From NCBI RefSeq assembly GCF_000455285.1, contig NZ_HG005284.1, positions 255,921 to 312,235 of the forward strand: a stretch of DNA of 56,315 nt, in the 5' to 3' direction. The notes below the pieces were generated by a model. That model saw only the letters and a list, made by a program, of their open reading frames with translations, searched no databases and was not told where the DNA came from. Shown piece by piece: positions 18,465 to 38,860 of the stretch. The translations under genes were made by a program, and so were the position numbers. The DNA is from Candidatus Stoquefichus massiliensis AP9 (GTDB lineage Bacteria > Bacillota_I > Bacilli_A > Erysipelotrichales > Coprobacillaceae). Position 1 is the first letter of the stretch. Each line of letters opens with the position of its first letter.

Positions 18465-18474
18465 AATCATCCTC

Positions 18475-18891: not shown

Positions 18892-18912
18892 AAAATCATC
18901 CTCCTTCTATTT

Positions 18913-20652: not shown

Positions 20653-20664
20653 TTCAGTTTCCTC

Positions 20665-21594: not shown

Positions 21595-21607
21595 ATTCTA
21601 TTCCTCC

Positions 21608-22195
21608 TTATTTGCCCATCATATTTTTATAAATCAATTCCGCTTCAGATGGTGTATCATCCTTAGCTCTTTTTGGTGGCTTTCCACCCTTTAGTCTTTC
21701 ATCAACCGCTTTTTCTACAGCAGATTGAAAAGCCTTTTCAACAGTCTCAATGCTTTTCTTGCAGCTGTCTGCATCAGTAAAATTTAGAATTTCGGCAAGT
21801 TCTGTTGGGATACCTTTATCAGCCAGCTGAACCTTAGCCTGCGCAGTCAATTCTCTTTGAGTAATTGCTGCTTCTCTCGCATCCAGGTCCTCCTGACGTT
21901 TCTTCGCCTGATATTCCTTCTTTTCCTTTTCGGACATTCCTGCAAGCTTTTCTGCTTCTGTTTTCTGATCTTCCAGATGCTTTTCCCAGCTTTTACGTTC
22001 CTTTGCAATTCTTCCCTGAACAATCTTGTCCAGTTCCTCCTGTGTAAAGGTCTTAGGCTGCTGAATATCATTTTCAGGTTCACCTTCATGACTTTCGTTT
22101 TCCTGATTATCTGTGTCATTTGCACCAGTCCCAGGATCTTCTTCTGCAAATAACTGTAAATTATCTAATGGAAATAAAAACTTGTTTTTTTTCAT
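21608..22195 (-). CDS. Capsid scaffolding protein (DUF4355-like)
   Basis: About 195 aa from MKKNKFLFPLDNLQLFAEED, with GGAGG just upstream. It has an acidic Asn/Glu-rich N-terminus, then a long charged coiled coil (TQEELDKIVQGRIAKERKSW; EKEKKEYQAKKRQEDLDARE) and a basic C-terminus (GGKPPKRAKDD). This composition is that of phage scaffold proteins. LQLFAE near the start is a frequent phage scaffold/capsid motif. Overlapping frames in this stretch are shadows. Confidence 0.82.
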   Translation of the reverse strand: MKKNKFLFPLDNLQLFAEEDPGTGANDTDNQENESHEGEPENDIQQPKTFTQEELDKIVQGRIAKERKSWEKHLEDQKTEAEKLAGMSEKEKKEYQAKKRQEDLDAREAAITQRELTAQAKVQLADKGIPTELAEILNFTDADSCKKSIETVEKAFQSAVEKAVDERLKGGKPPKRAKDDTPSEAELIYKNMMGK

Positions 22196-22282
22196 AACTT
22201 CCTCCATTTAAAGTCCGTACGACCATCCCAGCTTTTCATGTCATCAGTTTCTGGACATATAAAAAGACAATCACACGATTGC

Positions 22283-22441
22283 CTATTTATCATTATTTTC
22301 CTTTAATTCAGCAACAACTTTTTTGTCAATAAGTTCTTTCACTCGCTTAGGGTTTTCAACCACAAATATATCTCCCTCTCGTCTGGGAATTCCACACTGA
22401 ACATCAAACATGTTCCTGATAACCTTTAATCTCGCCATCAT
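22283..22441 (-). CDS. Small phage head-region protein
   Basis: About 52 aa from MMARLKVIRNMFDVQ, starting after AAAAGGAGGTGAAC. It contains RLKVIRNMFDVQCGIPRREGD and PKRVKELIDKKVVAEL. Similar short proteins occur between minor head and scaffold genes in many siphoviruses, but the role is not known to me. A gap of 87 bp without obvious features separates it from the scaffold start. Confidence 0.55.
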   Translation of the reverse strand: MMARLKVIRNMFDVQCGIPRREGDIFVVENPKRVKELIDKKVVAELKENNDK

Positions 22442-22484
22442 GTTCACCTCCTTTTTGGCAAAATAAAAACCGATGAAACATCGG

Positions 22485-22772
22485 TCAATAATAATCTTTT
22501 TCTTCAAGAATATCAAATAATTTGTCAAACAGTTCTTCTGTTTCATATCCTAATTCATTAGGTTCGTCATTCTCAAAACCATATTCAATATTCTTTTGAA
22601 TAACATAATTCCTTATTTGTCTTATTTCTTCCTTGCCGAGTGCCCTATTGGAATTGGTAAATTCAATAACATCCTTTTTTACATACCCATCATCAGGATT
22701 CAAATCTTTCATCTCTAACAAGCTAAATAATAGTTCTTTTTCATCCTTGGTTAACCTATATTTTTTGAACAT
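22485..22772 (-). CDS. Small acidic protein; candidate immunity protein for the minor head toxin domain
   Basis: A 95-aa, strongly acidic, helical protein (MFKKYRLTKDEKELLFSLLEM at the start; NELGYETEELFDKLFDILEEK at the end). It begins 3 nt after the minor head protein gene, whose C-terminus resembles a polymorphic toxin RNase domain. An acidic gene of ~100 aa directly after a toxin-like domain is the usual arrangement of an immunity gene. I do not recognise the family, so the role is inferred from position and composition. Confidence 0.45.
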   Translation of the reverse strand: MFKKYRLTKDEKELLFSLLEMKDLNPDDGYVKKDVIEFTNSNRALGKEEIRQIRNYVIQKNIEYGFENDEPNELGYETEELFDKLFDILEEKDYY

Positions 22773-22775
22773 ACA

Positions 22776-24338
22776 CTATAATTCCTTTCTTACAGTCTGA
22801 ATCAAAACACCTGTATCAGGATTGACTGTGACATCAACTCTCTTATTTGTATATTTACTACTTCTTCCGTTAGATCCAGACTTTGTATCAACAGCTTTTC
22901 CTGATAATGCTTCTATAATATCTTCTATATCAACACCTTCACGCTTGATTGATGCTTTTTGTCCTTCTTTAACGGTAGTTCCCAAAACTCTCTCAATAAA
23001 ATGATTACTTTGTGATGTTATTTTTATTCCATCACCTGTTATAAGACCAACAACATTATTTTGAATAATTTCATGATATTTCTTATAATCATCAAAACTG
23101 GAAAATGCTGATAATTTACCAGAAACACGTGACTTTTTATATTTCTTTAACAAGTTCCATTCATTAGTATTATTATACTTCATTTCCTGGAACTTTGCTA
23201 GTGAATCTGGCATGTTTTCAGTACCAATTACATCTTTATAATATTTATACTGCCTTCTGTCAGATGATAGATTTACTGTTTTCTTCTGAAATGTTTCAAC
23301 AGTATCAATTCCATGCACGTCCTGCTGCCTTTTTAGCCAATCATCATATGTTTCATTAGCATTAACAGTTTCTTCTTCACCAGTAATAGGATTACGCTGA
23401 CGACGAACCATATTTTCACTAACGCCTTCAATATATGGTTCCATAACAGAACGACAATGAGGATGAAGCGGAGGAATATCTTTACCAATTTCTCCCTTGC
23501 CTACTTCTACAGCAGTTCCATCGTGCTTCTGGCATACTCTTGAGGTCTTGAAATCATGCACTGCACGAAACACTTCTTTCCTGATTCCCGCATCCTCAAA
23601 TGCCAATTGATCAACAAACGAAGTTACTGCTGCCGATTCTGTTTCAATAAGACGTCTGGCCTTGTATGCACCAACAGAAAAACGCTCATCTATGCTGTCC
23701 TGCATTTCCCTTTCAGTCTTTCCAGTAAGAAGTCCCATCATCATTTCATCTTTTAGACTATAGGTCAATTCATCTGTGTTGTTCCAAATTCTTTCAGAAT
23801 AATTCTCCCCACTCCATCTTGACTTGAGCATTCCATCAACTAATGTTGGATCCAATGTATTAAACTGATAGGCAACATCTGTAGCATGCTGAATATTAAA
23901 AACATCTCTATGGTATCCATCAAAGGCTGAATTGATATAAGACAAAGTCGATACTTCCTTTTCGGTACTGTAGATGCTTTGCATCAGGATATCCAAATCA
24001 TTCTGGATATTTTCAAGTCTGCTGATTCGATAGCGATAGGCAGGTGCATCCAGCTTCTTGATAAGTTCTTTTTTCTCCTGGCTGGTTTGACCATTTTTCA
24101 GTTTTCTCAGCAGTTCATTGTAATCATGAGGATTTTCCAATGAATTAATAAGCGTTTTAGCTTCCTGAATAGAAAGATTGTTCTTTGCTCTGTAGGTATC
24201 AAATATTCCCTGAATTTTCTTATTCAGATACAGCGACGATTTTTGATACAGCTTAGCCAGATACTCTGCAGTAACATCTGCATCATTGAGAATATTAAGA
24301 AGTTTTTCTTCCTGCCTTTTCTTCCAGTAATCACTCAT
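22776..24338 (-). CDS. SPP1 gp7-like minor head protein with C-terminal toxin-like nuclease domain
   Basis: A 520-aa minor head protein. The central SPP1 gp7/Mu F-type region includes RLIETESAAVTSFVDQLAFE and the zinc-like FKTSRVCQKHDGT to PPLHPHCRS motif. The last ~90 residues (HFIERVLGT, REGVDIEDIIEALSG, GRSSKYTNKRVDVTVNPDTG) resemble RNase toxin domains of BECR type found in polymorphic toxins and reported as fusions to phage minor head proteins (PBECR). Minor head proteins can enter the cell with DNA, so the domain could act early after injection. The nuclease call is motif-based. Confidence 0.78.
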   Translation of the reverse strand: MSDYWKKRQEEKLLNILNDADVTAEYLAKLYQKSSLYLNKKIQGIFDTYRAKNNLSIQEAKTLINSLENPHDYNELLRKLKNGQTSQEKKELIKKLDAPAYRYRISRLENIQNDLDILMQSIYSTEKEVSTLSYINSAFDGYHRDVFNIQHATDVAYQFNTLDPTLVDGMLKSRWSGENYSERIWNNTDELTYSLKDEMMMGLLTGKTEREMQDSIDERFSVGAYKARRLIETESAAVTSFVDQLAFEDAGIRKEVFRAVHDFKTSRVCQKHDGTAVEVGKGEIGKDIPPLHPHCRSVMEPYIEGVSENMVRRQRNPITGEEETVNANETYDDWLKRQQDVHGIDTVETFQKKTVNLSSDRRQYKYYKDVIGTENMPDSLAKFQEMKYNNTNEWNLLKKYKKSRVSGKLSAFSSFDDYKKYHEIIQNNVVGLITGDGIKITSQSNHFIERVLGTTVKEGQKASIKREGVDIEDIIEALSGKAVDTKSGSNGRSSKYTNKRVDVTVNPDTGVLIQTVRKEL

Positions 24339-24356
24339 TGCTATTTACCAGCAATA

Positions 24357-25814
24357 CTAATGATTTTTTGAAGAATCCAGTTTAGAGTTTTTATCACTGG
24401 CAGAAGTATCCTCTGATGTATCTTCATCTTCCTCATCCTCCCTAAATGGCTTGTCATTCTCAAACTTAAACATCTGCTGCTGGCGACGTACGTTATCATC
24501 ATTTTCCTTCTTGACTTTCTCCACCTCACCAGCTGCATCTTCAACAAAAGGCAACTGTTCGATTAACGTTTCGTTTGACACCTTGCCACTTAAGTTTGCA
24601 ATCATCTGTGCAAGTTCATTGAGGTTCTTAGGAAGTTCCCTTGTGAATGTAATTTTAACCATATTTGGATTAACCGATATTGCTTTAAGTTTAAGAAAAT
24701 TACAGAACAGTTCAATTCTTCTTTTCAGACCCTTCTTATAGTACTTTTCCTTCTCGCCAGTAATCATCTGCAGTCCAAGCAACTTATACTCCATAGCTAC
24801 ACCTGAACTGTTGCCAACAAAGTTTTCATCCGTTAGGTTAGGAACATGAGAAAATGTGTAAATATCTTCCTTTATAGCCTTACGCAGTACTTCTATTCCC
24901 GTTTCATCAAATGTTCTTGCTATATATTCAGCACGTGCATCCAGTGGCAGTTCCAACAATCCATTTTCTTTCAGTATCTTCATAGCCTCAGAAACTTCTT
25001 CATTGTCATCACCTAGCAATGAGCCATAAATAACCAATAAAGCCTCAACAAACTGCTCCTTGTCATTGACTCTATCACTTGTGATTTTATTGTATGCATC
25101 TATAAGAGAAATCTGCTGTTCAAAATCACCAATGCAAAGTTTGTTGTTGCGATACTCAACGATTGGAACATTGCCAAGATGATTCTCATATGGCTCACTA
25201 ATATCTTGATGGTTGTTTCCATTGCATTCAAGTATCATATTGTAGATATAAGTCTTAGTTACTACTGTTGCACGATAGCAGAACTTTTCCGTTATTGAAT
25301 CCTTAAAGCGATAATAATAGACACCAAATAATAAATTCTGTTCAATGGTATCATCATACACAAGGAATGTATGATCAGCTTCAATATTTCTGACAAGCAA
25401 ATCAGTTGTATCCTCTTTGACATAAACATATTCATAGGCAACACCACAGACACTCATATCATGCGCATTGTCACTGTCCACATCATCTGTATCTGCTGTA
25501 TCAAATGCATCGGTGAGCCTATCAATACCTGCTGTATCTTCTTTATCATATACACCATACGATATTGGACTGTTCATGAAGAATCCAGTTGCTGTATCTG
25601 ATATATCCTTGGCATGATTGCATACAACCTTATTATTTGCCGCTTTCTTGTTCTTCTTTTTTCTGCCTTTGATCGCATGATCAGCTTCATAATATCTCAT
25701 ATTCTTTCTGAATTTTGATGCAATGTTATTGTGCTTTCTGATCAGCTGCTCAATTTGCGTTTTATTCAGCTGTGTTTCATCATATATACTTCCATCAACT
25801 GTAAATGTATACAT
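24357..25814 (-). CDS. Portal protein (SPP1 gp6-like)
   Basis: A 485-aa portal subunit forming the dodecameric DNA channel. Recognisable features are the N-terminal NKTQIEQLIRKHNNIASKF, GFFMNSPISYGV, VAYEYVYVKED, LTDENFVGNSSGVAMEYKL and a Glu/Asp-rich C-terminus. Position between TerL and the minor head gene is canonical. Ribosome site GGAGGG. An ATG 6 nt after its stop is not used; the next gene starts 18 nt downstream. Confidence 0.88.
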   Translation of the reverse strand: MYTFTVDGSIYDETQLNKTQIEQLIRKHNNIASKFRKNMRYYEADHAIKGRKKKNKKAANNKVVCNHAKDISDTATGFFMNSPISYGVYDKEDTAGIDRLTDAFDTADTDDVDSDNAHDMSVCGVAYEYVYVKEDTTDLLVRNIEADHTFLVYDDTIEQNLLFGVYYYRFKDSITEKFCYRATVVTKTYIYNMILECNGNNHQDISEPYENHLGNVPIVEYRNNKLCIGDFEQQISLIDAYNKITSDRVNDKEQFVEALLVIYGSLLGDDNEEVSEAMKILKENGLLELPLDARAEYIARTFDETGIEVLRKAIKEDIYTFSHVPNLTDENFVGNSSGVAMEYKLLGLQMITGEKEKYYKKGLKRRIELFCNFLKLKAISVNPNMVKITFTRELPKNLNELAQMIANLSGKVSNETLIEQLPFVEDAAGEVEKVKKENDDNVRRQQQMFKFENDKPFREDEEDEDTSEDTSASDKNSKLDSSKNH

Positions 25815-25825
25815 CTGATTCCCTC

Positions 25826-27100
25826 CTATTCGTATTTAGATCTGTTTTTGCCAGCACGACCTTTTTTCTTTGTAATATCATTTTCCATACCATATCTTGC
25901 AGCATCTATTGTATGGTTGTTCTTATCAGGAAACTCACCTTTGAGATTTCCCTCCTTATCCTTTTCAATTTCATATTCCTGAAATTCTCTAGCTGCATTT
26001 GGACATCTGATTGGATCAATGATAATTTCTTCTAGATCCTGTAGCCACTTGATTCCATTTTCAACACTACCTGGACCTTTCTTTGCACCAATTACGTTTA
26101 ATCCTAAGAGATTGAATTCATTTATAGTTCGAGGATCCTCACTATCAGCAATAATTAATTTATTTAAAGGATTGAGTTTTTTAATTTTAACCACAGCATT
26201 TGCATTTGATAATCTCACCTGATAAACTTCACCAAAAATAAAAAGACGTCTTCTCGTCTTGTCATAGTGCATTTTTAAATATGCCAATGGATCTCCAGCA
26301 TATCCAAAATCCAATCCATTCTTTAATCTATCAAACACCTGAATTTCTTCATCTGTTATTTGCCTGATTGAAAGGTTTGTAAATACCTCTCCACCCGTTC
26401 CAATAACAACACCTAGATATTCATGATCATATTTTGCCTTATTCACTTTCTTTAAATGCTCTGCTTCAATGATAAACTGTTCTCCCAGCCATTCCTTAGG
26501 AACATCCAAATAAGTACTATGATGGATATAAGTGTCTTCTCTCGGTTCAAGAACATGTCTGTTTACCCAGTTCCTCTGGCTTTCAGGCGGATTATAAGAG
26601 TAGAAAACAATAAAATCCGGTCCACCACGCATTAATGACTGATTGATGTTACGTATCTTGGCATAAGACTCAAACTCATCAACTTCTTCATACCAGATGT
26701 ATTTTATCCATCCCTTTGGCACTTTTGTTGATTTAACTTTTTTAGGATTATCAGCCCCTTTAAAACGAATGACCTGTCCAGTAGGCTTATAAGTAATTGT
26801 GAGTTTAGACTCTGGTACATGCCAATACTCAGATACACCAAGTATCTCAATAGCCCATTTAATCTGGTCACGTACTGATTCAGACAAAGTATCCTTTACA
26901 CGTCTTAAAACAAGTGCGTTGGACATAATTCCATTTTGAGCATCATCCATAATTCCTTTGACAATCTCTATACTGATAAATGATGATTTAGTAGATCCTC
27001 TACCACCCTTAAGCCAGTAATGAGTATGTCTTTTCTTAACAATATCAACATGGACTGCATGAAATGGTGCGGCTAGCACATCTGATAACTTAACTGTCAT
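25826..27100 (-). CDS. terL: Terminase large subunit (PBSX/Terminase_3 type)
   Basis: A 424-aa packaging motor with ATPase and nuclease domains. Walker A-like KGGRGSTKSS at residues 31-40, Walker B region IWYEEVDEF, and nuclease-domain acids in IIADSEDPRTIN and NHTIDAARYGME. The gene overlaps terS by 11 nt and lies 11 nt before the portal gene. The family does not tell with certainty whether packaging is cos or headful. Confidence 0.93.
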   Translation of the reverse strand: MTVKLSDVLAAPFHAVHVDIVKKRHTHYWLKGGRGSTKSSFISIEIVKGIMDDAQNGIMSNALVLRRVKDTLSESVRDQIKWAIEILGVSEYWHVPESKLTITYKPTGQVIRFKGADNPKKVKSTKVPKGWIKYIWYEEVDEFESYAKIRNINQSLMRGGPDFIVFYSYNPPESQRNWVNRHVLEPREDTYIHHSTYLDVPKEWLGEQFIIEAEHLKKVNKAKYDHEYLGVVIGTGGEVFTNLSIRQITDEEIQVFDRLKNGLDFGYAGDPLAYLKMHYDKTRRRLFIFGEVYQVRLSNANAVVKIKKLNPLNKLIIADSEDPRTINEFNLLGLNVIGAKKGPGSVENGIKWLQDLEEIIIDPIRCPNAAREFQEYEIEKDKEGNLKGEFPDKNNHTIDAARYGMENDITKKKGRAGKNRSKYE

Positions 27101-27485
27101 CTATATCATCAACTATCTGTACAAGTTGTTGACCAGATACTTCTAATTTTTGACTATAAAGTCCTTTCACTTTTAAAAGTTTTTCCACTGCATCATTTCT
27201 ATCCCTTAACGATGCATCAAGTCCAAAGGCATCCTTCTCCTGTCCACGAACGACTCTTGTAAGATACATCAGCAATTCATTGGCACTTGCTATTTCAGTT
27301 GACTCAATATCATTCAGCCATTGCTCCTTAAACTCAATAACATCCTTCTTGTTCATCATTCTTGAAAAAGCTGCAGCTGCTGAACTTTCTTTCCTGCATT
27401 TCTTGAAGACTGTCATATACGCCTTTGTACCATTGAATCCATTCTTAACCCATTCGATAACACAAAGTTTCTCTTTTTCTGTCAT
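27090..27485 (-). CDS. terS: Terminase small subunit
   Basis: A 131-aa DNA-recognition subunit. The N-terminal helix-turn-helix MTEKEKLCVIEWVKNGFNGTK and the C-terminal RNDAVEKLLKVKGLYSQKLEV are typical of the Terminase_2 family. It overlaps TerL. The packaging site (cos or pac) is expected nearby, possibly in the 27.8-28.2 kb gap, but I cannot place it. Confidence 0.87.
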   Translation of the reverse strand: MTEKEKLCVIEWVKNGFNGTKAYMTVFKKCRKESSAAAAFSRMMNKKDVIEFKEQWLNDIESTEIASANELLMYLTRVVRGQEKDAFGLDASLRDRNDAVEKLLKVKGLYSQKLEVSGQQLVQIVDDIDDS

Positions 27486-27718
27486 GATGTATCACCACTC
27501 TTGTACAGTAGATCCTTATACAAAAAAACAAGGTTATTTAATAACTGAACCTTGCCATAGCATTCTATTCCATCCTTAGGATTGTCATCATAGATGATAT
27601 ACTTTGTGACAATCTTACCTGTTTTCCTGCTTCTAAACTGCTGGGTATTGATAAAATACTCATGTCCATGCATTTTCAGAGCCAACAGCACCTTATTGAT
27701 ATTCTTCTGTATATTCAT
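27482..27718 (-). CDS. Small phage protein upstream of terS
   Basis: A 78-aa protein from MNIQKNINKVLLALKMHGHEY. The start is chosen at the ATG because GAAAGG is about 11 nt upstream, whereas the in-frame GTG is too close. FINTQQFRSRKTGKIVTKYII and the QLLNNLVFLYKDL end are seen in small conserved proteins next to phage terminases. Function unknown. It overlaps terS by 4 nt. Confidence 0.6.
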   Translation of the reverse strand: MNIQKNINKVLLALKMHGHEYFINTQQFRSRKTGKIVTKYIIYDDNPKDGIECYGKVQLLNNLVFLYKDLLYKSGDTS

Positions 27719-27742
27719 TACGATCACATCCTTTCATTTTCT

Positions 27743-27817
27743 TGGTCGCAGGAGGTGGACTTGAACCACCTACAACAGAAAAGCACTCTGTCAAGTTACC
27801 AGTTACTCCATCCTGCA
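27743..27817 (-). tRNA. Phage tRNA-like gene with atypical anticodon loop
   Basis: A 75-nt cloverleaf with encoded CCA. Acceptor TGCAGGA/TCCTGCG (U1-G72 wobble), D arm GAGT/ACTT with GG in the loop, anticodon stem ACAGA/TCTGT, 4-nt variable region, perfect T arm GGTGG-TTCAAGT-CCACC, discriminator A. The anticodon loop is GTGCTTT: U33 is present, the formal anticodon is GCU (serine), but position 37 is U and the variable arm is far too short for serine tRNA. It may be a degenerate or specialised tRNA, or a tRNA-like processing signal. It is directly upstream of the terminase genes. Confidence 0.65.
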
Positions 27818-28235
27818 ATGTTTTGGGTAAAAGAAAAAGGACTTGTTTGTCCTTGAATTTATAAATTTTAAGAATATACAACCGCTTAAAGCCATTCCCG
27901 TTGCGGTTAACATATCCATTATTGCTACTTGTACCTCACAATAATCTTTTTTGTTACAGGTTTTTTATAGCAAGCTGCGTCTGTGTAAAATACTTACTAC
28001 TGGCTATCATTTTCTCTTTTAAAGCGATACCACAATGTAAATTTAATTAATATATGGAGTTTAAAAGGAGTAATAAATCATGCCCGTGATATCGCTATAA
28101 AAGAAAAAAAGACGATCATTCGCCTTTTTTGGTTTGTTCATGTATTCTCAGAAAGGAGTGAACTAATGAAACCGTACCTTTGTATGTCTTTTGACAGTAT
28201 AATAATAACACGTTTTTTGATTACATAATATAGCA
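27818..28235. other. Gap between the tRNA-like gene and the membrane protein; no clear gene
   Basis: No gene is well supported in these ~420 bp. A minus-strand 38-codon ORF (MDMLTATGMALSGC) overlaps the tRNA and is doubtful. The plus strand holds two tiny ORFs with strong ribosome sites: MPVISL (start ~28080) and MKPYLCMSFDSIIITRFLIT (start ~28166). Dyads AACCGC/GCGGTT (27881-27909) and AGCGAT/ATCGCT (28023-28096), and a hairpin with T-run at ~28108-28131, suggest RNA structure. The phage packaging site may also lie here. Confidence 0.4.
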
Positions 28236-29459
28236 TTATATAAAATAAAGTATAACTATTATTAAAATTATGTTTATCCAAATTATAAAAGGATATCTAT
28301 TAAAAATTCTTCTTTTTAAATTAATAATTCTTGAATGAATATTACCCCGTTTAATTTTTAGATATTGTTTTATAGTTTCTCCAAAGTCTCTACAATTGCG
28401 CAACTCTCCCCAAGAATCCACAAAATACCACACTCCATCATCTTTATAAATTCGGCTTTTATCTACAAAAAGCAATTGTATTGATTTTCCTGTTACTTTA
28501 TCAAAAATTTTACCATATACATAATAAATAATAAAAATTGAATCTATAAATATTAAAAGAATAATTACAATCAATAAAATGTAGAATTCAAAACTTTTTC
28601 CTATCGCAAGACTTTCAATTATCCCAACAAAATCGTATTTATAATTAAATACATAAACTATCCAAGATATAACATCAACAACAATTAATATTAAAAAACA
28701 AATATTAAAATAATATATTATTGGATATTTTATTTTTAATCTTTCAATCACATTTGAACAATAAATATCTTCCGTTATAGTTGCAATTGATCTACCTAGT
28801 AATTTAGAAAGAAAATATAAAAACATAAAAATAATGTTAAAAACAATCCACCCCACCACTATGGAAATAGCAATACTTTTTAACAAAAATGTTTTACTTA
28901 TTGTTGAAAGAACATTCCCTAAAATACTTGTTCCACCAAAGTATACCAAAACAACCGCAGAAAAAATACCTAGTATGGATACAAACTCAGAATATGAATG
29001 TTCTGTTTGTTCTACTAATTTTTCTACTTTAGGTTTTATATTGCTTGCGGTTTCATTTAAATCATCATATTTTTGACGTAATTCTTGTCCAGTCATATCC
29101 ATTCTTGCATCTATAGATGTAATATAATTAATTCTAGCAATTTCTAAATTTGTATGATCTAGCAATTTTTTTAATGGTTGCTGTATAATATTATCACTTA
29201 CACAAGATTCTTTATATAAAATTTCTAAATTTTGACTAATTATTTCAATTTGTCTATTGTCTTTTTTTAAATCTGTAAGTATTGGAAAAATATCAGAATA
29301 AAAATGATGAAATATAACTTCACCATTTTTAATATATACATTTCGTAATCTATTTAAATAATTATCTTTAGCTCCTTGATTTTTAAGCGCTTTTTCATTT
29401 ACAAGGTCCTTAATTATTTGCTTTATCTGATTTCTTTTTTGTCTTTCGTTATTACTCAT
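28236..29459 (-). CDS. Multi-span membrane protein; candidate toxin partner of the Panacea antitoxin
   Basis: A 407-aa protein. The N-terminal ~155 residues are soluble and helical (coiled coil around 120-155), followed by hydrophobic segments near residues 160-183, 193-218, 250-275, 298-322 and 390-407, and a cytosolic-looking domain at ~325-385 with WYFVDSWGELRNCRDFG. I do not recognise a named family. It starts 4 nt after a Panacea-domain gene. Panacea antitoxins are known to pair with diverse toxins, including membrane-spanning ones. Codon use is more AT-rich than its phage neighbours, suggesting a separately acquired accessory cassette. Confidence 0.6.
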   Translation of the reverse strand: MSNNERQKRNQIKQIIKDLVNEKALKNQGAKDNYLNRLRNVYIKNGEVIFHHFYSDIFPILTDLKKDNRQIEIISQNLEILYKESCVSDNIIQQPLKKLLDHTNLEIARINYITSIDARMDMTGQELRQKYDDLNETASNIKPKVEKLVEQTEHSYSEFVSILGIFSAVVLVYFGGTSILGNVLSTISKTFLLKSIAISIVVGWIVFNIIFMFLYFLSKLLGRSIATITEDIYCSNVIERLKIKYPIIYYFNICFLILIVVDVISWIVYVFNYKYDFVGIIESLAIGKSFEFYILLIVIILLIFIDSIFIIYYVYGKIFDKVTGKSIQLLFVDKSRIYKDDGVWYFVDSWGELRNCRDFGETIKQYLKIKRGNIHSRIINLKRRIFNRYPFIIWINIILIIVILYFI

Positions 29460-29463
29460 TAAA

Positions 29464-29883
29464 TTATCCCCTTTCCCTAATTAATTCTTTTGGAATAATT
29501 TTTTTATAGCCAGAGCCATTATTATACACCTGATCCCAAGCTCCACCTAAAGAATGAGTTTTTTCAACCAAAACCCAAGGATCCATTACTCTTAAACGCT
29601 CGATAGTTTCATTTATATCTAGTTTAATCTTCTCATCCAAATTATTATCATATTCTCTATCAATTGGCATAGCCCCATAACTACAAAATATGTTATATAA
29701 TTGAGGGATAACCGGTCCATATGGCCACGCCTCAAAATCCTCTCTAATAAACCATCCCGCATGTTTAAGCCTATCTTTCTGTATAAAAAACAAAATTTTT
29801 TGTAGTTGCAAGTTACTTATTGGTTCGTTATCTTGTGAACATTTTGAAAGTATATATTTTGCAATTTCAATAACATTAATCAT
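29464..29883 (-). CDS. Panacea-domain (DUF4065) protein, candidate antitoxin
   Basis: About 139 aa from MINVIEIAKYILSK, with AAGGGG 9 nt upstream; further upstream ATGs lie too near or before that site. NLQLQKILFFIQ and FEAWPYGPVIPQLYNIF are the hallmark motifs of the Panacea/DUF4065 (SocA/GepA-like) domain. These proteins are usually antitoxins in two-gene operons. The next gene is a large membrane protein 4 nt downstream. The pair interrupts the phage packaging-replication order and so looks like a lysogenic-conversion or defence cassette. Confidence 0.8.
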   Translation of the reverse strand: MINVIEIAKYILSKCSQDNEPISNLQLQKILFFIQKDRLKHAGWFIREDFEAWPYGPVIPQLYNIFCSYGAMPIDREYDNNLDEKIKLDINETIERLRVMDPWVLVEKTHSLGGAWDQVYNNGSGYKKIIPKELIRERG

Positions 29884-29967
29884 ATAATTCATCCCCTTAT
29901 GTTTATAATATACCTCATCTCTCAAAAAAATACAACTCCTACACATTCTATAAAAAAAGACACCAAA

Positions 29968-30501
29968 CTACAGTATCTTTCTCAAAATGTTACTTGCTTT
30001 ACGATAAACATCACCATTATTCTCAATCCTATACTTCTTCATAACCTTTTTAAAGCCAATCGCTTCGATGTAAATATCTTTAATGAATTGCCTATCATCT
30101 TCACTCATTTCTTCCAAAGCCTTCTCAACATTCGCTATACGAGACATCAGAACCCACTTGCGATTGTAATAAACATAATTGTTCAGCTGGTAGAACTTTC
30201 GCAACTCTTCATTAGCTTTGTCTTTCTCTTCTGTCAATCTGTTTATCTTCTGGTCAAGAGATTCAACATGTCCACCCAAACCATCACCCTTACCAGGTGA
30301 TTTTATTTTTTGGATTTCCTCGTCACTCTGGTAAACTTTTTCCTGTCTTGTGATGACTTCCTTAGCATATTCAACATCAAGACAATTTAATTCGTTCTTG
30401 AGATGTTTGTAATTCTTGATATCAGACCTCAATAAATCCAACGATCTAACTCTTCCTGAATCTGCAAGTTTCTGTAATAATTCCTTTTCTAATTCATCCA
30501 C
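29968..30501 (-). CDS. ArpU/sigma-like late transcription regulator
   Basis: A 177-aa protein with coiled-coil N-terminus (KHLKNELNCLDVEYAKEVIT) and a C-terminal helix-turn-helix-like region (DRQFIKDIYIEAIGFKKVMKKY; NNGDVYRKASNILRKIL). Position at the end of the early operon, just before packaging genes, matches ArpU/RinA-type late gene activators of Firmicute phages. The match is by architecture and position. Confidence 0.6.
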   Translation of the reverse strand: MDELEKELLQKLADSGRVRSLDLLRSDIKNYKHLKNELNCLDVEYAKEVITRQEKVYQSDEEIQKIKSPGKGDGLGGHVESLDQKINRLTEEKDKANEELRKFYQLNNYVYYNRKWVLMSRIANVEKALEEMSEDDRQFIKDIYIEAIGFKKVMKKYRIENNGDVYRKASNILRKIL

Positions 30502-30514
30502 CTTATCAATCCTC

Positions 30515-30655
30515 CTAATCCTTGTATGCTATTAATATCAAGGCAGCACAACCCCAGGCACTGTTAAAGAACCAGCAAAGGAATGCTGTCAAAGCAAGCA
30601 CTCCTAATTTGTAAATACAATCACACACTACCTTGTACTTCTGATCATTAAACAT
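30515..30655 (-). CDS. Small membrane protein (46 aa)
   Basis: MFNDQKYKVVCDCIYKLGV followed by one hydrophobic segment (LALTAFLCWFFNSAWGCAALILIA). GGGAGGA precedes the ATG. It is followed by the ArpU-like gene after 14 nt. Unknown function; typical short membrane gene of a phage early operon. Confidence 0.6.
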   Translation of the reverse strand: MFNDQKYKVVCDCIYKLGVLALTAFLCWFFNSAWGCAALILIAYKD

Positions 30656-30658
30656 ATT

Positions 30659-30778
30659 CTAATCCTCCCTACTTTCTGCATTCCTGATTGTTAATAATAT
30701 AAATACCAAACCTGGTACTCCAATAACCGTATAGATAAATCCTAACACAGCAAAGAAATTAATTATCCCATTAGGCAT
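30659..30778 (-). CDS. Small membrane protein (39 aa)
   Basis: Starts MPNGIINFFAVLGFIYTVIG with one transmembrane span and a charged C-terminus ending NAESRED. Ribosome site AAGGAAGGTG. It lies between rusA and the 46-aa gene; its stop is 3 nt before the next start. Function unknown. Confidence 0.55.
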   Translation of the reverse strand: MPNGIINFFAVLGFIYTVIGVPGLVFILLTIRNAESRED

Positions 30779-30814
30779 TTACTTCACCTTCCTTTATAAG
30801 ATTCTTAACCTTTC

Positions 30815-31252
30815 TTAACTTCTGAACAGCTCGCCATTCTCACTTAAACATATCACGAGCTTCTCTTCCTTATTCCAATGCCTAAGGACATGGATCTCAT
30901 TCACCTGCGTATCGTCCTGATAAGCAATCTTATTCAAAGCATCAAGCACGATTTTAATCACATTGTCAATATCAGGTTTCTTTCCTGGCCATAAACTGTT
31001 CTTTAATTTTATAAGTTTATTCTTCTTCGTATCTGACTTGTTAGGAGCGAAACAGATATACATAGATATTCTTACACTCTTTTGTGAAATATAGCTCGTA
31101 TGCTTTAAATATGAAGCTTGTATGAGTTTTTCGTATGTCACTGTATTTTTATCTGTATATGTATGACCATTTTTCATGAATCTCGGTCTGCCCTTACCCC
31201 TAACTTTACCAGGTACTTCAAACACTAAACCATAACTAGGCCATTGGGTCAT
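30815..31252 (-). CDS. rusA: RusA-family Holliday junction resolvase
   Basis: About 145 aa from MTQWPSYGLVFEVPG (starts up to 15 codons earlier are open). KGRPRFMKNG, KPDIDNVIKIVLDALN and YQDDTQVNEI are the RusA hallmarks; the aspartates in the last two motifs bind the catalytic metal. It resolves recombination or replication junctions before packaging. The start overlaps the end of the upstream gene, with no clear ribosome site, so translation is probably coupled. Confidence 0.9.
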   Translation of the reverse strand: MTQWPSYGLVFEVPGKVRGKGRPRFMKNGHTYTDKNTVTYEKLIQASYLKHTSYISQKSVRISMYICFAPNKSDTKKNKLIKLKNSLWPGKKPDIDNVIKIVLDALNKIAYQDDTQVNEIHVLRHWNKEEKLVICLSENGELFRS

Positions 31253-31952
31253 CGTCTTCATCGTCAAACGATTCCTCAATGTATTCATCATCGTCAAACT
31301 CTTCAGGTGGTTCTTCTACTGGTGGATTGGCGTTGATTGCATCCATAATCTTTTCAGCAATTCCCTGATTATTCTCATAAGCATCAATTTTCATCTGTGT
31401 TGAATCTTCAACATCAGGAACAACAACGCTATCTGTAAAAACAAGATAAATGTCACAATAGTCATCCTGACTCCTTATAATCAGGCAATCTTGCCCATTA
31501 TATATTTCAAATTCAGTGAATGCCTTCAGATAAGAGATATCATCGTCTCTAATCCATTTACCTGAATCCATTGCTATCTTGGCGATTTTATGATCATAAT
31601 CCTTTGACATTTCAGCAATCCACTCTTTGGAATGAATTCGACTATCTACAAAATCGATAATATTGTAGTAGAGTTTTTGTGTATCGAAATCAAGTCCACT
31701 TAAAGCATCCAATACAAATGACTTGTTTGGAAGCTGCTTCAGTTCATATTGATATGTTGCAAAGTCATAAGACTCTACGAGTGTTTCTTCATTTTCTTTT
31801 GAAATGAATACTCCACAGTACCCTAATGTATAAAAGTAAAGTTTATTCAAATTACCAACAATAGCAGTTCTGTCACTTGTCTTTCCAAAAATCTTATTTA
31901 CTACGTCCAGCAGCTTATATAGCTGTTTTTCTTCTTTTGTTATTTTCATCAT
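31236..31952 (-). CDS. Early phage protein with long acidic tail ending DDPMA
   Basis: A 238-aa protein, not recognised. The first ~190 residues look globular and mixed alpha/beta. The last ~40 are Glu/Asp/Pro-rich (EEPPEEFDDDEYIEESFDDE) and end DDDPMA. The same terminal DDPMA ends the RecT protein and occurs internally in the DUF1351 protein. An acidic tail with a fixed end recalls the protein-docking tail of single-stranded DNA-binding proteins, but no OB-fold could be identified. Ribosome site AGGAGAG. Confidence 0.6.
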   Translation of the reverse strand: MMKITKEEKQLYKLLDVVNKIFGKTSDRTAIVGNLNKLYFYTLGYCGVFISKENEETLVESYDFATYQYELKQLPNKSFVLDALSGLDFDTQKLYYNIIDFVDSRIHSKEWIAEMSKDYDHKIAKIAMDSGKWIRDDDISYLKAFTEFEIYNGQDCLIIRSQDDYCDIYLVFTDSVVVPDVEDSTQMKIDAYENNQGIAEKIMDAINANPPVEEPPEEFDDDEYIEESFDDEDDDPMA

Positions 31953-31963
31953 GTTTCACTCTC

Positions 31964-33340
31964 CTAATAGTTTTGGTAGATTGTTGTACCGAAACGATAC
32001 TTTTTTGCCCATTTCTTAATGAATCTAGATACTGCATCTATTGGATCACAGTTATGTAACCCTCTGACCTGATTAATCTTTTTATCCTTTAATTCCAATG
32101 TGTAGAAGGGATGAAGCACATCATCACGTTTTCTAATCAAAAATATAGTGGTCTCTCCTCTTGCGTACTTATTCGTATAGGTCCTTACACAGTGATGAAG
32201 CTGCTTACTTTCTTCTATTAAATCCTGAACACTATTTGCTGGAGTAATGACATATTCATTATCTGCATAGCGATATTTAAATAGCGTCTTAATCACCTGT
32301 TCTTGAATCTTATCCGTTACAATCTTTGACTCATTGATTTTTATTTTATCTTGCATATCATCATGAGCTTTTTTAAAATTTTCTGGATACCTGACTGCTG
32401 ATGTTAAAGGAATCCCTAAGATATTACAGAAGCCTATGTAATCAATATAGTCACTGCTATATGAACTGTATTCATATCCATATGTGTTTGAACGGTCTAC
32501 CTTGTCAATGTATTCAATTAGTTTTTTAGACATTGGATAATTCCTTTGCAGAAGAATATCGTAAATAAATATTTTATGCTTAGAATCAAGACCATATTTT
32601 CTGATGTTATCTTTATGTTTCCTGTAGTACTTCAGACCGCCCTGACGACTACATAAATTTATGATTTCTAGTTCACTTTTATCATCAATTCCAAGAAGTT
32701 TATATCCCTTCTGTGACCATCTTAAGCAGTTCATGCTTCCTTGTACGACATCCATAAGACCCATTTTAGCTATAATTTCCATCTGTGGATGCTTTTCGTA
32801 CTGATAAAGGAACCAGAATAATCTTTCATCTTCAAGCCCGCTCTCCTTGAACCCACAATACTTATGTTTAGTTTGCTTAAGCAAATGTTCATAATCATTT
32901 AATCTATAATGGCTGATATACTGACTTGAATAGCGCTGACCATAGCTGATCATGAATCTCTCATTGGTGCTTCTTTCCCACTCACAATTATTATAGGATT
33001 TCCAGTAGATCATCCTGATTCCACCATATGAAGCAACATATATTCCTTTGTTGATTTTATATCTTGAACCAGCCAGGTAGCGCTGAACTTCATAGATGTT
33101 ACAGTATTGCTTAATCTTCTGTTCCCACTTCTGGTTGACATAGAACACTCTTTCAATCAGCCTTTCATTCCATATCTCAAACTTTGATATGTAAAACTCA
33201 TTGACTATTGAATCTTTTTTTCTGTTCTTCCATACTGATTTGTCATTCATGTCATAGAGATAACATTCAAATTGTTCAATATCGAGTGCATCAAGATGTG
33301 CCTTCGATAAATCATCAAGAAACTTTTCCATGCTCGTCAT
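31964..33340 (-). CDS. PcfJ-like protein
   Basis: About 458 aa from MTSMEKFLDDLS. The C-terminal ~110 residues carry the PcfJ signature (LIEESKQLHHCVRTYTNKYA, GETTIFLIRKRDD, KINQVRGLHNCDP). PcfJ and PcfK occur together on conjugative plasmids and phages; their biochemical role is not established. The start lies within the end of the pcfK-like gene, indicating coupling. Confidence 0.8.
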   Translation of the reverse strand: MTSMEKFLDDLSKAHLDALDIEQFECYLYDMNDKSVWKNRKKDSIVNEFYISKFEIWNERLIERVFYVNQKWEQKIKQYCNIYEVQRYLAGSRYKINKGIYVASYGGIRMIYWKSYNNCEWERSTNERFMISYGQRYSSQYISHYRLNDYEHLLKQTKHKYCGFKESGLEDERLFWFLYQYEKHPQMEIIAKMGLMDVVQGSMNCLRWSQKGYKLLGIDDKSELEIINLCSRQGGLKYYRKHKDNIRKYGLDSKHKIFIYDILLQRNYPMSKKLIEYIDKVDRSNTYGYEYSSYSSDYIDYIGFCNILGIPLTSAVRYPENFKKAHDDMQDKIKINESKIVTDKIQEQVIKTLFKYRYADNEYVITPANSVQDLIEESKQLHHCVRTYTNKYARGETTIFLIRKRDDVLHPFYTLELKDKKINQVRGLHNCDPIDAVSRFIKKWAKKYRFGTTIYQNY

Positions 33341-33791
33341 AGTAGTGTCGCCCCCATCCATAAACGATGTCATCTGATAGATAGCCTTCCTTTTCTGCAT
33401 CTTCAGGAAATGCATCTATCAACTCCTGTGGTACAGTTATGAATGCTCCATTTTTTGCATGCTTTCTAGCTTGCGATTGAATGTATTCATACATCCCTTC
33501 AATAGACACATATGGATGTTCCATTTTTTCCTTGATATCAGGATATTTCATAAGCAGATATCTAACGATCACTTTTTCCTGAGGTCCTGCCTTTTTTAAC
33601 TGCTCATCAAATGTCGGTACTGTAGATGTTTCTAATTCATCCTTTTTGCCTTCTTTTTTCTTCACTGATGGTTTTTCTTCTGTTTTAGGTGTTACAGACT
33701 GTAATTCCTTATTTTGCTTTGTAATAGGCGTATTCTGTGCCTTTTGCTTTTCTTGCTCCTGTTTCATCATTTCAAAAAAATCTAATGCCAT
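33315..33791 (-). CDS. PcfK-like protein
   Basis: About 158 aa from MALDFFEMMKQEQEK, with AGGGGAA at proper spacing; the longer frame upstream overlaps the helicase loader and is unlikely. A Lys/Glu-rich linker precedes PTFDEQLKKAGPQEKVIVRYLLMKYP and VSIEGMYEYIQSQARKHAKNG, the PcfK core. It pairs with the PcfJ-like gene downstream. Confidence 0.75.
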   Translation of the reverse strand: MALDFFEMMKQEQEKQKAQNTPITKQNKELQSVTPKTEEKPSVKKKEGKKDELETSTVPTFDEQLKKAGPQEKVIVRYLLMKYPDIKEKMEHPYVSIEGMYEYIQSQARKHAKNGAFITVPQELIDAFPEDAEKEGYLSDDIVYGWGRHYYDEHGKVS

Positions 33792-33814
33792 TTTTAGTTC
33801 CCCTTTCTGTTTTT

Positions 33815-34594
33815 TTATACTTTGCTTTTCTTTATGCGATAGTTGTTGCTCTGTGTCTTGGGAATCCTGATCAAGTAATCCTGACACATCTCAGCAATTC
33901 TATAAGCAATTGCTTCATCAAGTTCACACAACTGTTTAAAGGAGCGTTCACTCGATATAATTGTTTTCAGCCGATTGTTATATCGGTAATTAATTAAATC
34001 AAATGCAATGTTCTTGATATCGTATTCAGTATCTGCACCTTTGAATAAATCATCTATGTATAAAACTTCAACTTGCTGATATTCCCTCATAAGGTCCTTG
34101 CTGGCAACGTTCTTCATGTTCTCCTTGTAGAATGTTGCAAAATCATTCCATGCAAGATAGCGAACATCCTTGTACATTTCCATGAAGGCATTGCAAATAG
34201 CTGAGCAGATATGTGTCTTTCCTGCACCGCTTTGTCCCAGCATGCAGAACCAGCAATTGTTATCAGTTCTAACATAATGTGCTGCTGTGTTTTTAACTTT
34301 CTTTTGCCATTCTTCTTTGGCTTCATAATTCTTAACCCTATGTTTCAGAAGTTCTCCCAATCCACTTTCATCGGCTAACCGTTTCACTTTTCTAAGATGC
34401 ATGCATTTACAACTTACAAGAGATTGTGTAACACCATTGTCATCATCAAGAAGAATATATCCTTTGTTCTTGCATATAGGACAGTCAATACCATCCAAAT
34501 CATTAAGGTGTCCAATTTCATCATTAGCTAATTTTGTTATATCACACTGAATTTCAGAATTTCCGTTATTTAGGAAATTTTGTATTTTATCCAA
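33815..34594 (-). CDS. DnaC/DnaI-like helicase loader (AAA+ ATPase)
   Basis: A 259-aa replication protein. A zinc-knuckle N-terminus (Cys38, Cys41, Cys62, Cys64) is followed by Walker A GQSGAGKTH at residues 120-128, Walker B VLYIDDLFK and the arginine-containing NRLKTIISSERS region. It should load the host replicative helicase at the phage origin, because the prophage carries no helicase gene of its own. It lies directly after the iteron region. Confidence 0.9.
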   Translation of the reverse strand: MDKIQNFLNNGNSEIQCDITKLANDEIGHLNDLDGIDCPICKNKGYILLDDDNGVTQSLVSCKCMHLRKVKRLADESGLGELLKHRVKNYEAKEEWQKKVKNTAAHYVRTDNNCWFCMLGQSGAGKTHICSAICNAFMEMYKDVRYLAWNDFATFYKENMKNVASKDLMREYQQVEVLYIDDLFKGADTEYDIKNIAFDLINYRYNNRLKTIISSERSFKQLCELDEAIAYRIAEMCQDYLIRIPKTQSNNYRIKKSKV

Positions 34595-34725
34595 TTACTT
34601 ATTCACCCCTTTTTGAAATATTTATATTCATGAAAATTTGGCTTGCTACTATATAACATATAGAAGACTAATATATATATAAATATATTCTTATATTCTT
34701 AAATTCTTATATATATAGATAGATG
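34595..34725. other. AT-rich tract next to iterons (likely DNA unwinding region)
   Basis: About 130 bp of nearly pure A/T (TATATATATAAATATATTC-like) lies between the helicase loader start and three 22-bp iterons. No ORF is supported. The combination suggests the melted part of the phage replication origin. Confidence 0.5.
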
Positions 34726-34787
34726 TGGGGATTTATTCCTCACATAGTGGGGAAAATTTCCTCACTTAATGGGGATTTATTCCTCAC
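34726..34787. repeat. Three 22-bp iterons; candidate phage replication origin
   Basis: TGGGGATTTATTCCTCAC (34726-34743), TGGGGAAAATTTCCTCAC (34748-34765) and TGGGGATTTATTCCTCAC (34770-34787) recur every 22 bp with 4-bp spacers. Each unit is also an imperfect dyad (GTGnGGAAA/TTTCCnCAC). They overlap the stop codon of the winged-helix gene and abut an AT-rich tract, the usual layout of an initiator-binding site in siphovirus origins. An operator function is an alternative. Confidence 0.65.
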
Positions 34788-35110
34788 ATGACATCATTCA
34801 AACTATCCTGATAAAGGTCATAATTTTTCACTTTTATTATTGAAATTTTTCCACTTTTTCTTACACTAATGACTTTCTCATCAATCAATATATTTAGACT
34901 TTTCCTAATTGTCTTTCTATCTTTTTTTAGGTCTTCAGCAAGTTCTGAGACACTGATTTTCAGTTCACCACGCTTCTCATCATCACTATCAAACCATGAA
35001 GCTTCTAAAATTATATGAAAGAAGAGGAGCATAGTGTTTGCATCAGTATAAAACTTATTACGCTTAAGTTTTCTATGAAATTTAACGAAACCCTCCTCAT
35101 TCTTTTTCAT
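34784..35110 (-). CDS. Winged-helix protein, likely replication initiator
   Basis: A 108-aa protein: EGFVKFHRKLKRNKFYTDAN then LKISVSELAEDLKKDRKTIRKSLNILIDEKVISV, a winged helix as at the N-terminus of phage DnaD-like initiators, with no C-terminal DnaD domain. Its short length suggests that it binds DNA and works with the separate DnaC-like loader. It ends within the iterons, its probable binding sites. Initiator function is inferred. Confidence 0.7.
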   Translation of the reverse strand: MKKNEEGFVKFHRKLKRNKFYTDANTMLLFFHIILEASWFDSDDEKRGELKISVSELAEDLKKDRKTIRKSLNILIDEKVISVRKSGKISIIKVKNYDLYQDSLNDVM

Positions 35111-35118
35111 ATCTTTAT

Positions 35119-35511
35119 TTAACCTTCTATCAGTGCACAGTGATTAATTAAATCATCCAGTTTGTACTCTTTTCCAGTTTCCAAGAACTTGAATAATTTT
35201 TGTTTGGACCAATTCTGATAGAATACTTCAATATCACATTCATCTGGTCCATGCCATATTGACATATCATTATCCTCATCTATCATGATTCCGATAATTT
35301 CATTATCTTTCCAGTAGTTCATCAGCATCCATTCTAGTTCATTAACATAGAATTTTTCTGGCACTTCTGCTAAAAGGTTCTTTTTAGTAGGCAGTTTCTC
35401 AACGCCTTCAATAAATATTGCAATACTAGGAATAACATTATCTTTGGTAATTGTTTTCGCCTGATTAATGCTTATTTCATTTTCCATTAATAACTTAGTA
35501 ATAAGATTCAT
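35119..35511 (-). CDS. Hypothetical early phage protein (130 aa)
   Basis: Not recognised. N-terminal helical ISINQAKTITKDNVIPSIAIFIEG and a central acidic GIMIDEDNDMSIWHGPDECDIEVF, ending in HCALIEG. No membrane span. It lies between recT and the winged-helix gene in the replication operon, 8 nt from each neighbour. Confidence 0.6.
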   Translation of the reverse strand: MNLITKLLMENEISINQAKTITKDNVIPSIAIFIEGVEKLPTKKNLLAEVPEKFYVNELEWMLMNYWKDNEIIGIMIDEDNDMSIWHGPDECDIEVFYQNWSKQKLFKFLETGKEYKLDDLINHCALIEG

Positions 35512-35520
35512 ATGTACCTC

Positions 35521-36507
35521 CTACGCCATTGGATCATCTTCAATGTCAACAGTTGCTATTTCCTGCTGGAGATCAGTTAAATCCAATGATGGTGAAGATG
35601 TTTCCTGTTCGATTTGTGGAGTTTCTATAGTTTGTTGCAAATCATTATCAATGATATCTGGATGATCAACATATTCAGGCTTTAAATCCTCTGTGATAAC
35701 TGCCTGATCACTTTCAACAGCTCTTTGCATTTCAGTTGATAGTAAACCATGTTTAGATAACAGTTGTCTTAACATCGTCTTTTTCGCCATTTCATCAAAG
35801 TTCTTATACCAGAATGATGAATACTTCCATAAATCTTTTTGAGGAATTTTACCTTCCTGAAGTTCATGGTATTTCTGCAAACTAAATGCTTGAGAAAATT
35901 CATCAGCATGTTTTAGCATCTTTTCCTTAGACCAGTAAATACGCTTGATATAACCATTTTTCATCTCAAAATAAGCCATATATCCAATAATAGGAAGATT
36001 CTCTCTTATTGCATCATCATCCACAAATTCAAACTCAGGCTTTCCAGTTAGTCGATTACGCCCTTTATATTCACCCTCACGAATTTCAATGGCATCTATA
36101 TCAATATATTCTCCAGTTCTAATTGCTAATTGAAGGTAACCTTTATATCCCAACTGAAACTGTGCTTCTGTTTTTTCAGGAGAGATAATTTGTCCTGTCT
36201 GTTTATCATATTTTGCTTTTTTCTTATATGGAACCATATAGAAGTATCCAAGCTGAGGGCTAGGCTTCAAATGTAAACTTTGTCCTAATAACGCTGCACT
36301 GATGATTGACTGTGAATCACATTCAGCTAATGCTGGATTATTATTGACCGCACTTGTGATTGATGTAATAAACTCCTGTGCATCAGTACGACCAACCATC
36401 TGATAAATCTTTGTCTTCATCAAATCAGAACCCATAAGATTATTGAATGCTTTAATTCCATTCATAGGAAGATTTTTACTTTTACCTGTTAAACTATTTT
36501 GTACCAT
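35521..36507 (-). CDS. recT: RecT-family single-strand annealing protein
   Basis: A 328-aa recombinase. Family motifs: NPALAECDSQSIISAALLGQSLHLKPSP, GYFYMVPYKKK, FQLGYKGYLQLAIRTGEY, KTMLRQLLSKHG, listed here in pieces under 20 residues each in practice (LLGQSLHLKPSP, YKGYLQLAIRTGEY). It anneals single strands produced by the YqaJ exonuclease encoded ~4 kb upstream. The C-terminal ~60 residues are acidic and end IEDDPMA, a motif shared with two other early proteins. Ribosome site AGGAGG. Confidence 0.92.
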   Translation of the reverse strand: MVQNSLTGKSKNLPMNGIKAFNNLMGSDLMKTKIYQMVGRTDAQEFITSITSAVNNNPALAECDSQSIISAALLGQSLHLKPSPQLGYFYMVPYKKKAKYDKQTGQIISPEKTEAQFQLGYKGYLQLAIRTGEYIDIDAIEIREGEYKGRNRLTGKPEFEFVDDDAIRENLPIIGYMAYFEMKNGYIKRIYWSKEKMLKHADEFSQAFSLQKYHELQEGKIPQKDLWKYSSFWYKNFDEMAKKTMLRQLLSKHGLLSTEMQRAVESDQAVITEDLKPEYVDHPDIIDNDLQQTIETPQIEQETSSPSLDLTDLQQEIATVDIEDDPMA

Positions 36508-38744: not shown

Positions 38745-38860
38745 TGTGAATAACTCCTTTCTTTTTTTACAAAACTTAACATTTTTCACCATTTACTTTA
38801 TAATGAGTATATAAGTATTTAGTGGTACTTAAATCCAATTAGAAAGTGAGGTGATTATAA

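What the first reader, a model, noticed from the sequence alone, without database searches (positions are those of the whole stretch)
28236..29883. Panacea antitoxin with a five-span membrane partner: likely new PanAT-type pair
Seen: clear Panacea/DUF4065 motifs, 4-nt gap to a 407-aa protein with N-terminal coiled coil, about five spans and a C-terminal soluble segment (WYFVDSWGEL). It interrupts the late-regulator to terminase order. Known: Panacea antitoxins neutralise diverse toxins, some membrane-acting. The partner matches no family I can name.
Basis: partly seen in the sequence, partly recalled or inferred. Interest (0 to 1): 0.62.

Follow-up and report, generated by a model that had tools for sequence, protein, structure and literature searches.

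The report
Prophage Panacea toxin-antitoxin pair, membrane toxin
A prophage carries a two-gene poison-and-antidote cassette: a small Panacea antidote protein and a membrane protein that probably makes the cell membrane leak, a pairing already widespread in phages, although this copy's membrane protein has an unusual extra tail.

Summary
A 139-aa Panacea/SocA protein (29464-29883, minus strand; PF13274, E=1.1e-12) is followed after 4 nt by a 407-aa protein (28236-29459) with an N-terminal helical domain, a long helix, five predicted spans and a soluble C-terminal segment. The cassette is AT-rich (23-25% GC in the toxin gene against 34-37% around it) and lies inside a prophage, between the RusA region and the terminase. 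The reading 'PanAT-type pair' is well supported; 'new' and 'matches no family' are not. Residues 10-274 match phrog_5763 (E=1.8e-35). Of 41 sequence clusters of this family that I collected, 40 have a Panacea gene or its remnant immediately upstream on the same strand, and the two proteins' distances correlate (Mantel r=0.64, 0 of 5000 permutations as high). The architecture matches the published description of PanT_Hel.sp., a validated membrane-depolarising Panacea toxin, and Helicobacteraceae carry many family members, although I could not obtain that protein's sequence. Most likely this is a type II toxin-antitoxin pair whose toxin depolarises the inner membrane. Particular to this copy are residues ~316-407 (soluble segment plus fifth span), which no relative has. 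Toxicity and neutralisation are untested here.

The parts
29464..29883 (-). panA: stand-alone Panacea/SocA-domain protein, 139 aa, putative antitoxin; GPV motif in WPYGPV; no HTH or PAD1 extension
   Evidence: PF13274 1.1e-12; phrog_1281 3.4e-33; alignment with 5 phage/plasmid PanAs, 28-38% identity; RBS AAGGGG
28236..29459 (-). panT: 407-aa membrane protein, putative toxin of the phrog_5763 family
   Evidence: phrog_5763 1.8e-35 over residues 10-274; all 42 aligned family members match phrog_5763; AlphaFold2 model, mean pLDDT 80.9
28986..29459 (-). panT residues 1-158: N-terminal helical domain (1-88) and the first part of the long helix (93-186) that continues into span 1
   Evidence: model pLDDT mostly 82-97 in residues 1-160
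28512..28988 (-). panT residues 158-316: spans 1-4; span 1 carries the family signature ILGIFSA..FGG
   Evidence: hydropathy, model, family alignment with near-invariant I162 L163 G164 F166 G175
28236..28514 (-). panT residues 316-407: basic soluble segment with three short strands and a helix, then span 5; not seen in any homologue
   Evidence: absent from the other 60 collected family members; no credible match in phages, viral contigs or 309 genomes of the order
28105..28130 (-). intrinsic-terminator-like hairpin ~105 nt downstream of panT
   Evidence: 5 such sites found in 3.3 kb; shuffles mean 0.7
8551..46032 (.). host prophage, ending at the tyrosine integrase gene 44902-46032
   Evidence: IMG/VR contig of 37,482 bases that holds the identical pair, placed by coordinates; integrase PF00589 3.4e-25

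Best explanation
A prophage-borne type II toxin-antitoxin module of the PanAT kind. PanA, a stand-alone Panacea domain, binds and silences PanT, an inner-membrane protein. Free PanT most likely oligomerises through its cytosolic N-terminal domain and long helix and depolarises the membrane through its spans, stopping growth. The module is probably a moron that favours keeping the prophage and/or excludes other phages when PanA is titrated or triggered. Shown here: the Panacea identity, the family, the strict pairing and order, the co-variation of the two proteins, the predicted membrane topology and the cassette's deviant composition. Inferred from published homologues or close analogues: toxicity, depolarisation, direct neutralisation. 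Speculative: oligomerisation and the biological role.
For: Panacea domain well above cut-off. The partner belongs to phrog_5763. PanA directly upstream on the same strand (gap -50 to +35 nt in intact pairs) in 39 of 41 clusters at 60% identity, plus a PanA C-terminal remnant upstream in a 40th (L044). Distances of 38 PanA/PanT pairs correlate, r=0.64, 0 of 5000 permutations as high. On the PanT tree the window groups with all 8 sampled Helicobacteraceae and four Clostridia members (98/94). Published: PanT_Hel.sp. has an N-terminal coiled-coil region and C-terminal spans, is toxic in E. coli, is neutralised by its PanA and depolarises the membrane without large pores (PMC8832971). In three closely related Helicobacteraceae genomes panT is frameshifted while panA is intact, as expected if toxin loss is tolerated. 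The cassette is AT-rich: 23-25% GC against 34-37% around it.
Against: The sequence of PanT_Hel.sp. could not be obtained, so homology to it is by description only; a small 130-aa two-span Panacea partner also occurs in Helicobacteraceae (L105). No toxicity data for any member in hand. Eight of the 25 putative pairs tested in the published screen were not toxic in E. coli. One family member (L052) has no recognisable PanA. The Mantel correlation may partly reflect shared host history.
Confidence: 0.78

Rival explanations
1. PanAT pair with a membrane-located toxin that acts on a specific membrane or division process rather than by depolarisation, as toxFtsL (T_D9), a membrane-located Panacea-neutralised toxin that inhibits divisome assembly.
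For: toxFtsL is also paired with a stand-alone Panacea antitoxin and is a 281-aa membrane protein that does not act by depolarisation (PMC10440598). The N-terminal helical domain here is large and well folded, more than a pore-former strictly needs.
Against: The published description of a coiled coil followed by C-terminal spans (PanT_Hel.sp.) goes with depolarisation. No GAF or FtsL-like match in Pfam or PDB searches.
Confidence: 0.14
2. A phage superinfection-exclusion or abortive-infection device in which PanA is mainly a sensor of an incoming phage and the membrane protein the effector; toxin-antitoxin behaviour is secondary. This overlaps with the best explanation rather than excluding it.
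For: Family members sit in prophages and satellite phages, in several Streptococcus phages at the prophage end behind the lysin. Panacea has been proposed as a sensor domain, and the Kita-phage RosmerTA system with a depolarising membrane toxin defends against phages (PMC10440598).
Against: No defence data for this family; the window protein matches no PADLOC model and the few hits of its relatives are scattered and weak.
Confidence: 0.35
3. Two unrelated adjacent cargo genes; the membrane protein is a structural, holin-like or exclusion protein independent of Panacea.
For: Prophage setting; membrane proteins are common there.
Against: 40 of 41 family clusters have PanA or its remnant directly upstream and the two proteins co-vary.
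Confidence: 0.03

Closest known systems
PanT_Hel.sp./PanA_Hel.sp. (Helicobacter sp. 13S00482-2), validated membrane-depolarising PanAT pair, PMC8832971
   Same: Panacea antitoxin; N-terminal coiled-coil region then C-terminal spans as described in the paper; Helicobacteraceae are rich in homologues of the window PanT (20 of 121 genomes), in the same tree group as the window
   Different: Identity by sequence not tested (record not available); no Helicobacteraceae homologue in hand has the window's residues 316-407
phrog_5763 (with the related phrog_38724), PHROGs, unknown function
   Same: Window residues 10-274 match over the whole profile (1.8e-35); all 42 aligned members match it
   Different: The profile is 283 positions; the window protein continues for ~130 residues (span 4, soluble segment, span 5)
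PanAT of Streptococcus phages (Javan447, Javan235, phiGBSVK-E1) and satellite phages
   Same: Gene order panA-panT, slight overlap or a few nt between, ILGVFSA..FGG signature, prophage cargo
   Different: 18-23% identity to the window; three spans; the pair lies behind the lysin, not before the terminase
PanT_D11 (Bartonella), T3/T12 small membrane PanTs
   Same: Membrane toxins neutralised by a Panacea antitoxin
SocAB (Caulobacter)
   Same: Antitoxin domain family (NCBIfam SocA model, E=1.4e-23)
   Different: 83.5 bits, far below the model's cut-off of 190; the 407-aa five-span partner matches no NCBIfam family

Membership tests
PanAT (Panacea toxin-antitoxin pairs) | Panacea/DUF4065 domain in one gene | tested here: met
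   PF13274 1.1e-12, 49.3 bits, cut-off 25.7
PanAT (Panacea toxin-antitoxin pairs) | GPV signature of Panacea | tested here: met
   WPYGPV; W53, G56, P57, V58 invariant in the alignment
[quoted passage not shown]
   4 nt; 39 of 41 clusters with intact PanA upstream across Bacillota and Campylobacterota, gaps -50 to +35 nt in intact pairs
PanAT (Panacea toxin-antitoxin pairs) | Toxin inhibits growth; antitoxin rescues; the proteins form a complex | not testable with these tools
   needs expression and pull-down
phrog_5763 family | Full-length match to the family profile | tested here: met
   1.8e-35, profile positions 11-282 of 283
PanT_Hel.sp. family of membrane PanTs | N-terminal coiled-coil/helical region followed by C-terminal spans | tested here: met
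   hydropathy and model
PanT_Hel.sp. family of membrane PanTs | Sequence homology to WP_095295403.1 | not testable with these tools
   the record could not be fetched; 20 of 121 Helicobacteraceae genomes hold homologues of the window PanT
PanT_Hel.sp. family of membrane PanTs | Membrane depolarisation | not testable with these tools
   needs a dye assay
SocAB (type VI) | Antitoxin above the SocA equivalog cut-off | tested here: not met
   83.5 against 190 bits
Known anti-phage defence systems (PADLOC 2.0.0) | Match to a model | tested here: not met
   toxin none; antitoxin only DarG at E=0.015

The most novel reading that the evidence does not exclude
The toxin's extra C-terminal module (residues ~316-407: basic soluble segment with a small sheet, then a fifth span) is a gained regulatory or sensing part that changes how the membrane toxin is gated or triggered, making this a distinct variant of the PanT family.
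Probability: 0.2. Interest if true: 0.4.

Novelty: new member of a known kind. Interest (0 to 1): 0.3.

Why it matters
It ties an unannotated phage protein family (phrog_5763) to Panacea antitoxins with near-perfect pairing across two phyla. That gives a function hypothesis to dozens of 'hypothetical protein' genes in Streptococcus, Helicobacter and Clostridia prophages and satellite phages, and suggests candidates for testing whether Panacea membrane toxins serve superinfection exclusion. The kind of system itself is already published.

Tried and rejected
Pfam, NCBIfam and PADLOC with the 407-aa protein: nothing significant. Profile search of solved structures with 46 members: only coiled-coil background, best E=0.014. 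Foldseek against PDB: best E=0.59; VIA-align Z at most 6.1, below the level that means anything for helical bundles. Foldseek against viral models found only hypothetical phage proteins of about the family's length, one of them from Staphylococcus phage SpT152, where a Panacea-like stretch lies upstream of a truncated relative. Attempt to pin PanT_Hel.sp. by a tail-needle-like PDB match of Helicobacteraceae members: no such match. One genome-collection scan with the H. rodentium protein returned only itself. L086 and L087 were hit weakly but are not family members (L086 looks like trigger factor) and were dropped. Homologues of residues 316-407: only chance-level matches, E 8.6e-4 or worse, several with stops or short frames. 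A sigma-70-type promoter just upstream of panA was not found by the scan. The idea that panA and panT are chance neighbours was rejected.

Full report
What is there. On the minus strand, a 139-aa protein (29464-29883) and a 407-aa protein (28236-29459) are separated by 4 nt. Each start has a strong Shine-Dalgarno; that of the second gene (AAAGGGG) lies inside the end of the first, so the two are probably translationally coupled. A terminator-like hairpin lies ~105 nt downstream (28130-28105). GC is 23-25% within the toxin gene against 34-37% around the cassette, as for a late-acquired cargo cassette. The identical pair lies in an IMG/VR contig of 37,482 bases; by coordinates that provirus covers window 8551-46032 and ends at a tyrosine integrase gene. 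The cassette sits between the RusA region (30815-31297) on one side and a tRNA-Ser, terminase small and terminase large subunit genes on the other.

Identity of the parts. The small protein is a stand-alone Panacea domain: PF13274 at 1.1e-12, about twice the cut-off score, with the GPV signature that is reported to be critical for neutralisation (PMC8832971). The large protein has no Pfam, NCBIfam or PADLOC family but matches phrog_5763 over nearly the whole profile (residues 10-274, E=1.8e-35). All 42 aligned members of the family I collected match the same PHROG. So 'matches no family' is true only for the curated libraries.

Anatomy of the membrane protein. An AlphaFold2 model on 42 sequences (mean pLDDT 80.9, pTM 0.47) gives a compact helical domain (1-88; pLDDT about 90-97), one continuous helix from 93 to 186 that becomes span 1, spans 2-4 (192-217, 246-273, 290-315), a low-confidence segment (316-387) with three short strands and a helix, and span 5 (390-406). 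Positive charges fall on the loops expected to be inside if the N-terminus is cytosolic: 5 K/R between spans 2 and 3, 16 K/R in 316-387, 2 between spans 3 and 4. The family signature ILGIFSA..FGG is span 1; near-invariant residues are I162, L163, G164, F166 and G175. Intact relatives have two to four spans by hydropathy and up to 396 aa; none has anything like residues 316-407, and searches with that stretch alone found only chance matches.

Is the pairing real? I collected homologues without asking for Panacea: 13 phage records and one plasmid, 30 viral contigs, and genomes from the window's family, order, class and phylum and from Helicobacteraceae. The pairing count rests on the loci; after removing two false hits there are 61 distinct proteins in 41 clusters at 60% identity. 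In 39 clusters an intact PanA lies immediately upstream on the same strand, always in the order panA-panT, with gaps of -50 to +35 nt in intact pairs. In a 40th (L044, near a contig end) a PanA C-terminus can be read just upstream...GAWDRIYQNGSGNHKIIPRDFIKAEE. L052 is the only one without, and it has a transposase-like ORF upstream (recognised by eye). Two satellite-phage loci where the record shows no or only a short PanA do have one. Over 38 dereplicated pairs the PanA and PanT distances correlate (Mantel r=0.64, 0 of 5000 permutations as high), and the window's nearest PanA and nearest PanT come from largely the same loci. In Helicobacteraceae, three closely related genomes have panT frameshifted beside an intact panA, a pattern expected of a toxin gene, though the number is small and the three are not independent.

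What is known. PanAT systems were defined by Kurata et al. (PMC8832971): Panacea antitoxins pair with dozens of unrelated toxins, form complexes with them, and several partners act on the membrane. One of these, PanT_Hel.sp. of a Helicobacter, is described as having spans at its C-terminus and an N-terminal region resembling coiled coils; it is toxic in E. coli, neutralised by its PanA, and depolarises the membrane without large pores. Of 121 Helicobacteraceae genomes, 20 carry homologues of the window PanT, and on the PanT tree the window falls in a supported group (98/94) with all 8 sampled Helicobacteraceae members and four Clostridia members. Among the other Panacea partners I could read in Helicobacteraceae, nearly all are soluble; one small two-span protein (L105) also has a charged N-terminus. 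So the validated PanT_Hel.sp. is probably a relative of the window protein, but I could not fetch its sequence and this link rests on description and taxon. I put it at about 75%.

How it most likely works. PanA binds PanT and keeps it silent (inferred from PMC8832971 and from PMC10440598, which shows that stand-alone Panacea domains neutralise toxins directly). When PanA is lost or diverted, PanT depolarises the membrane and growth stops (inferred). In a prophage this would favour retention of the prophage and could exclude other phages; a depolarising membrane toxin paired with a different antitoxin in Gordonia phage Kita does provide defence (PMC10440598). I rate the pair as a toxin-antitoxin system at about 0.9 and depolarisation as the mechanism at about 0.65. 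The main rival within the same class is a membrane toxin with a specific target, as toxFtsL.

Novelty. The kind of system, the antitoxin domain and the toxin family are known or catalogued. New here are the explicit link between phrog_5763 and Panacea with near-complete pairing, which I did not find stated in the papers I could read, and the C-terminal extension of this one protein. The finding is a new member of a known kind with a modest variant feature.

Limits.

Noticed in passing
L065, L071, L072 (Helicobacteraceae genomes G333, G341, G346): panT is frameshifted or interrupted while the adjacent panA is intact and 94-97% identical to that of a related genome with an intact toxin: decay of the toxin first, or possibly phase variation.
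   Followed up: partly
L006 and L009 (Streptococcus satellite phages Javan360, Javan375): The Panacea gene upstream of panT is not annotated (Javan360) or annotated too short (Javan375) in the deposited records.
   Followed up: yes
L119, L120, L121, L088, L091-L093: A different, soluble Panacea partner (~137-161 aa, ending in a GY...F...D..F.LY.H motif) is shared by Salmonella, Pseudomonas and Escherichia phages and Helicobacteraceae genomes: another recurrent PanT type that I did not name.
   Followed up: no
L122 (Cylindrospermopsis phage Cr-LKS4): A Panacea gene lies between two annotated CRISPR arrays in a phage genome, with no annotated partner gene next to it.
   Followed up: no
window 27743-27817: A tRNA-Ser(GCT) gene between panT and the terminase genes of the prophage.
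   Followed up: no
window 31964-33887: A 483-aa protein of phrog_8470 (unknown function) next to a protein with weak PcfK-like similarity in the prophage replication region.
   Followed up: no
alignment A3, loop between spans 2 and 3: Some members (e.g. L029, L030, L041) carry a Cys/His-rich motif (CNC...CKH) in the cytosolic loop, absent in the window protein; possibly metal-binding.
   Followed up: no
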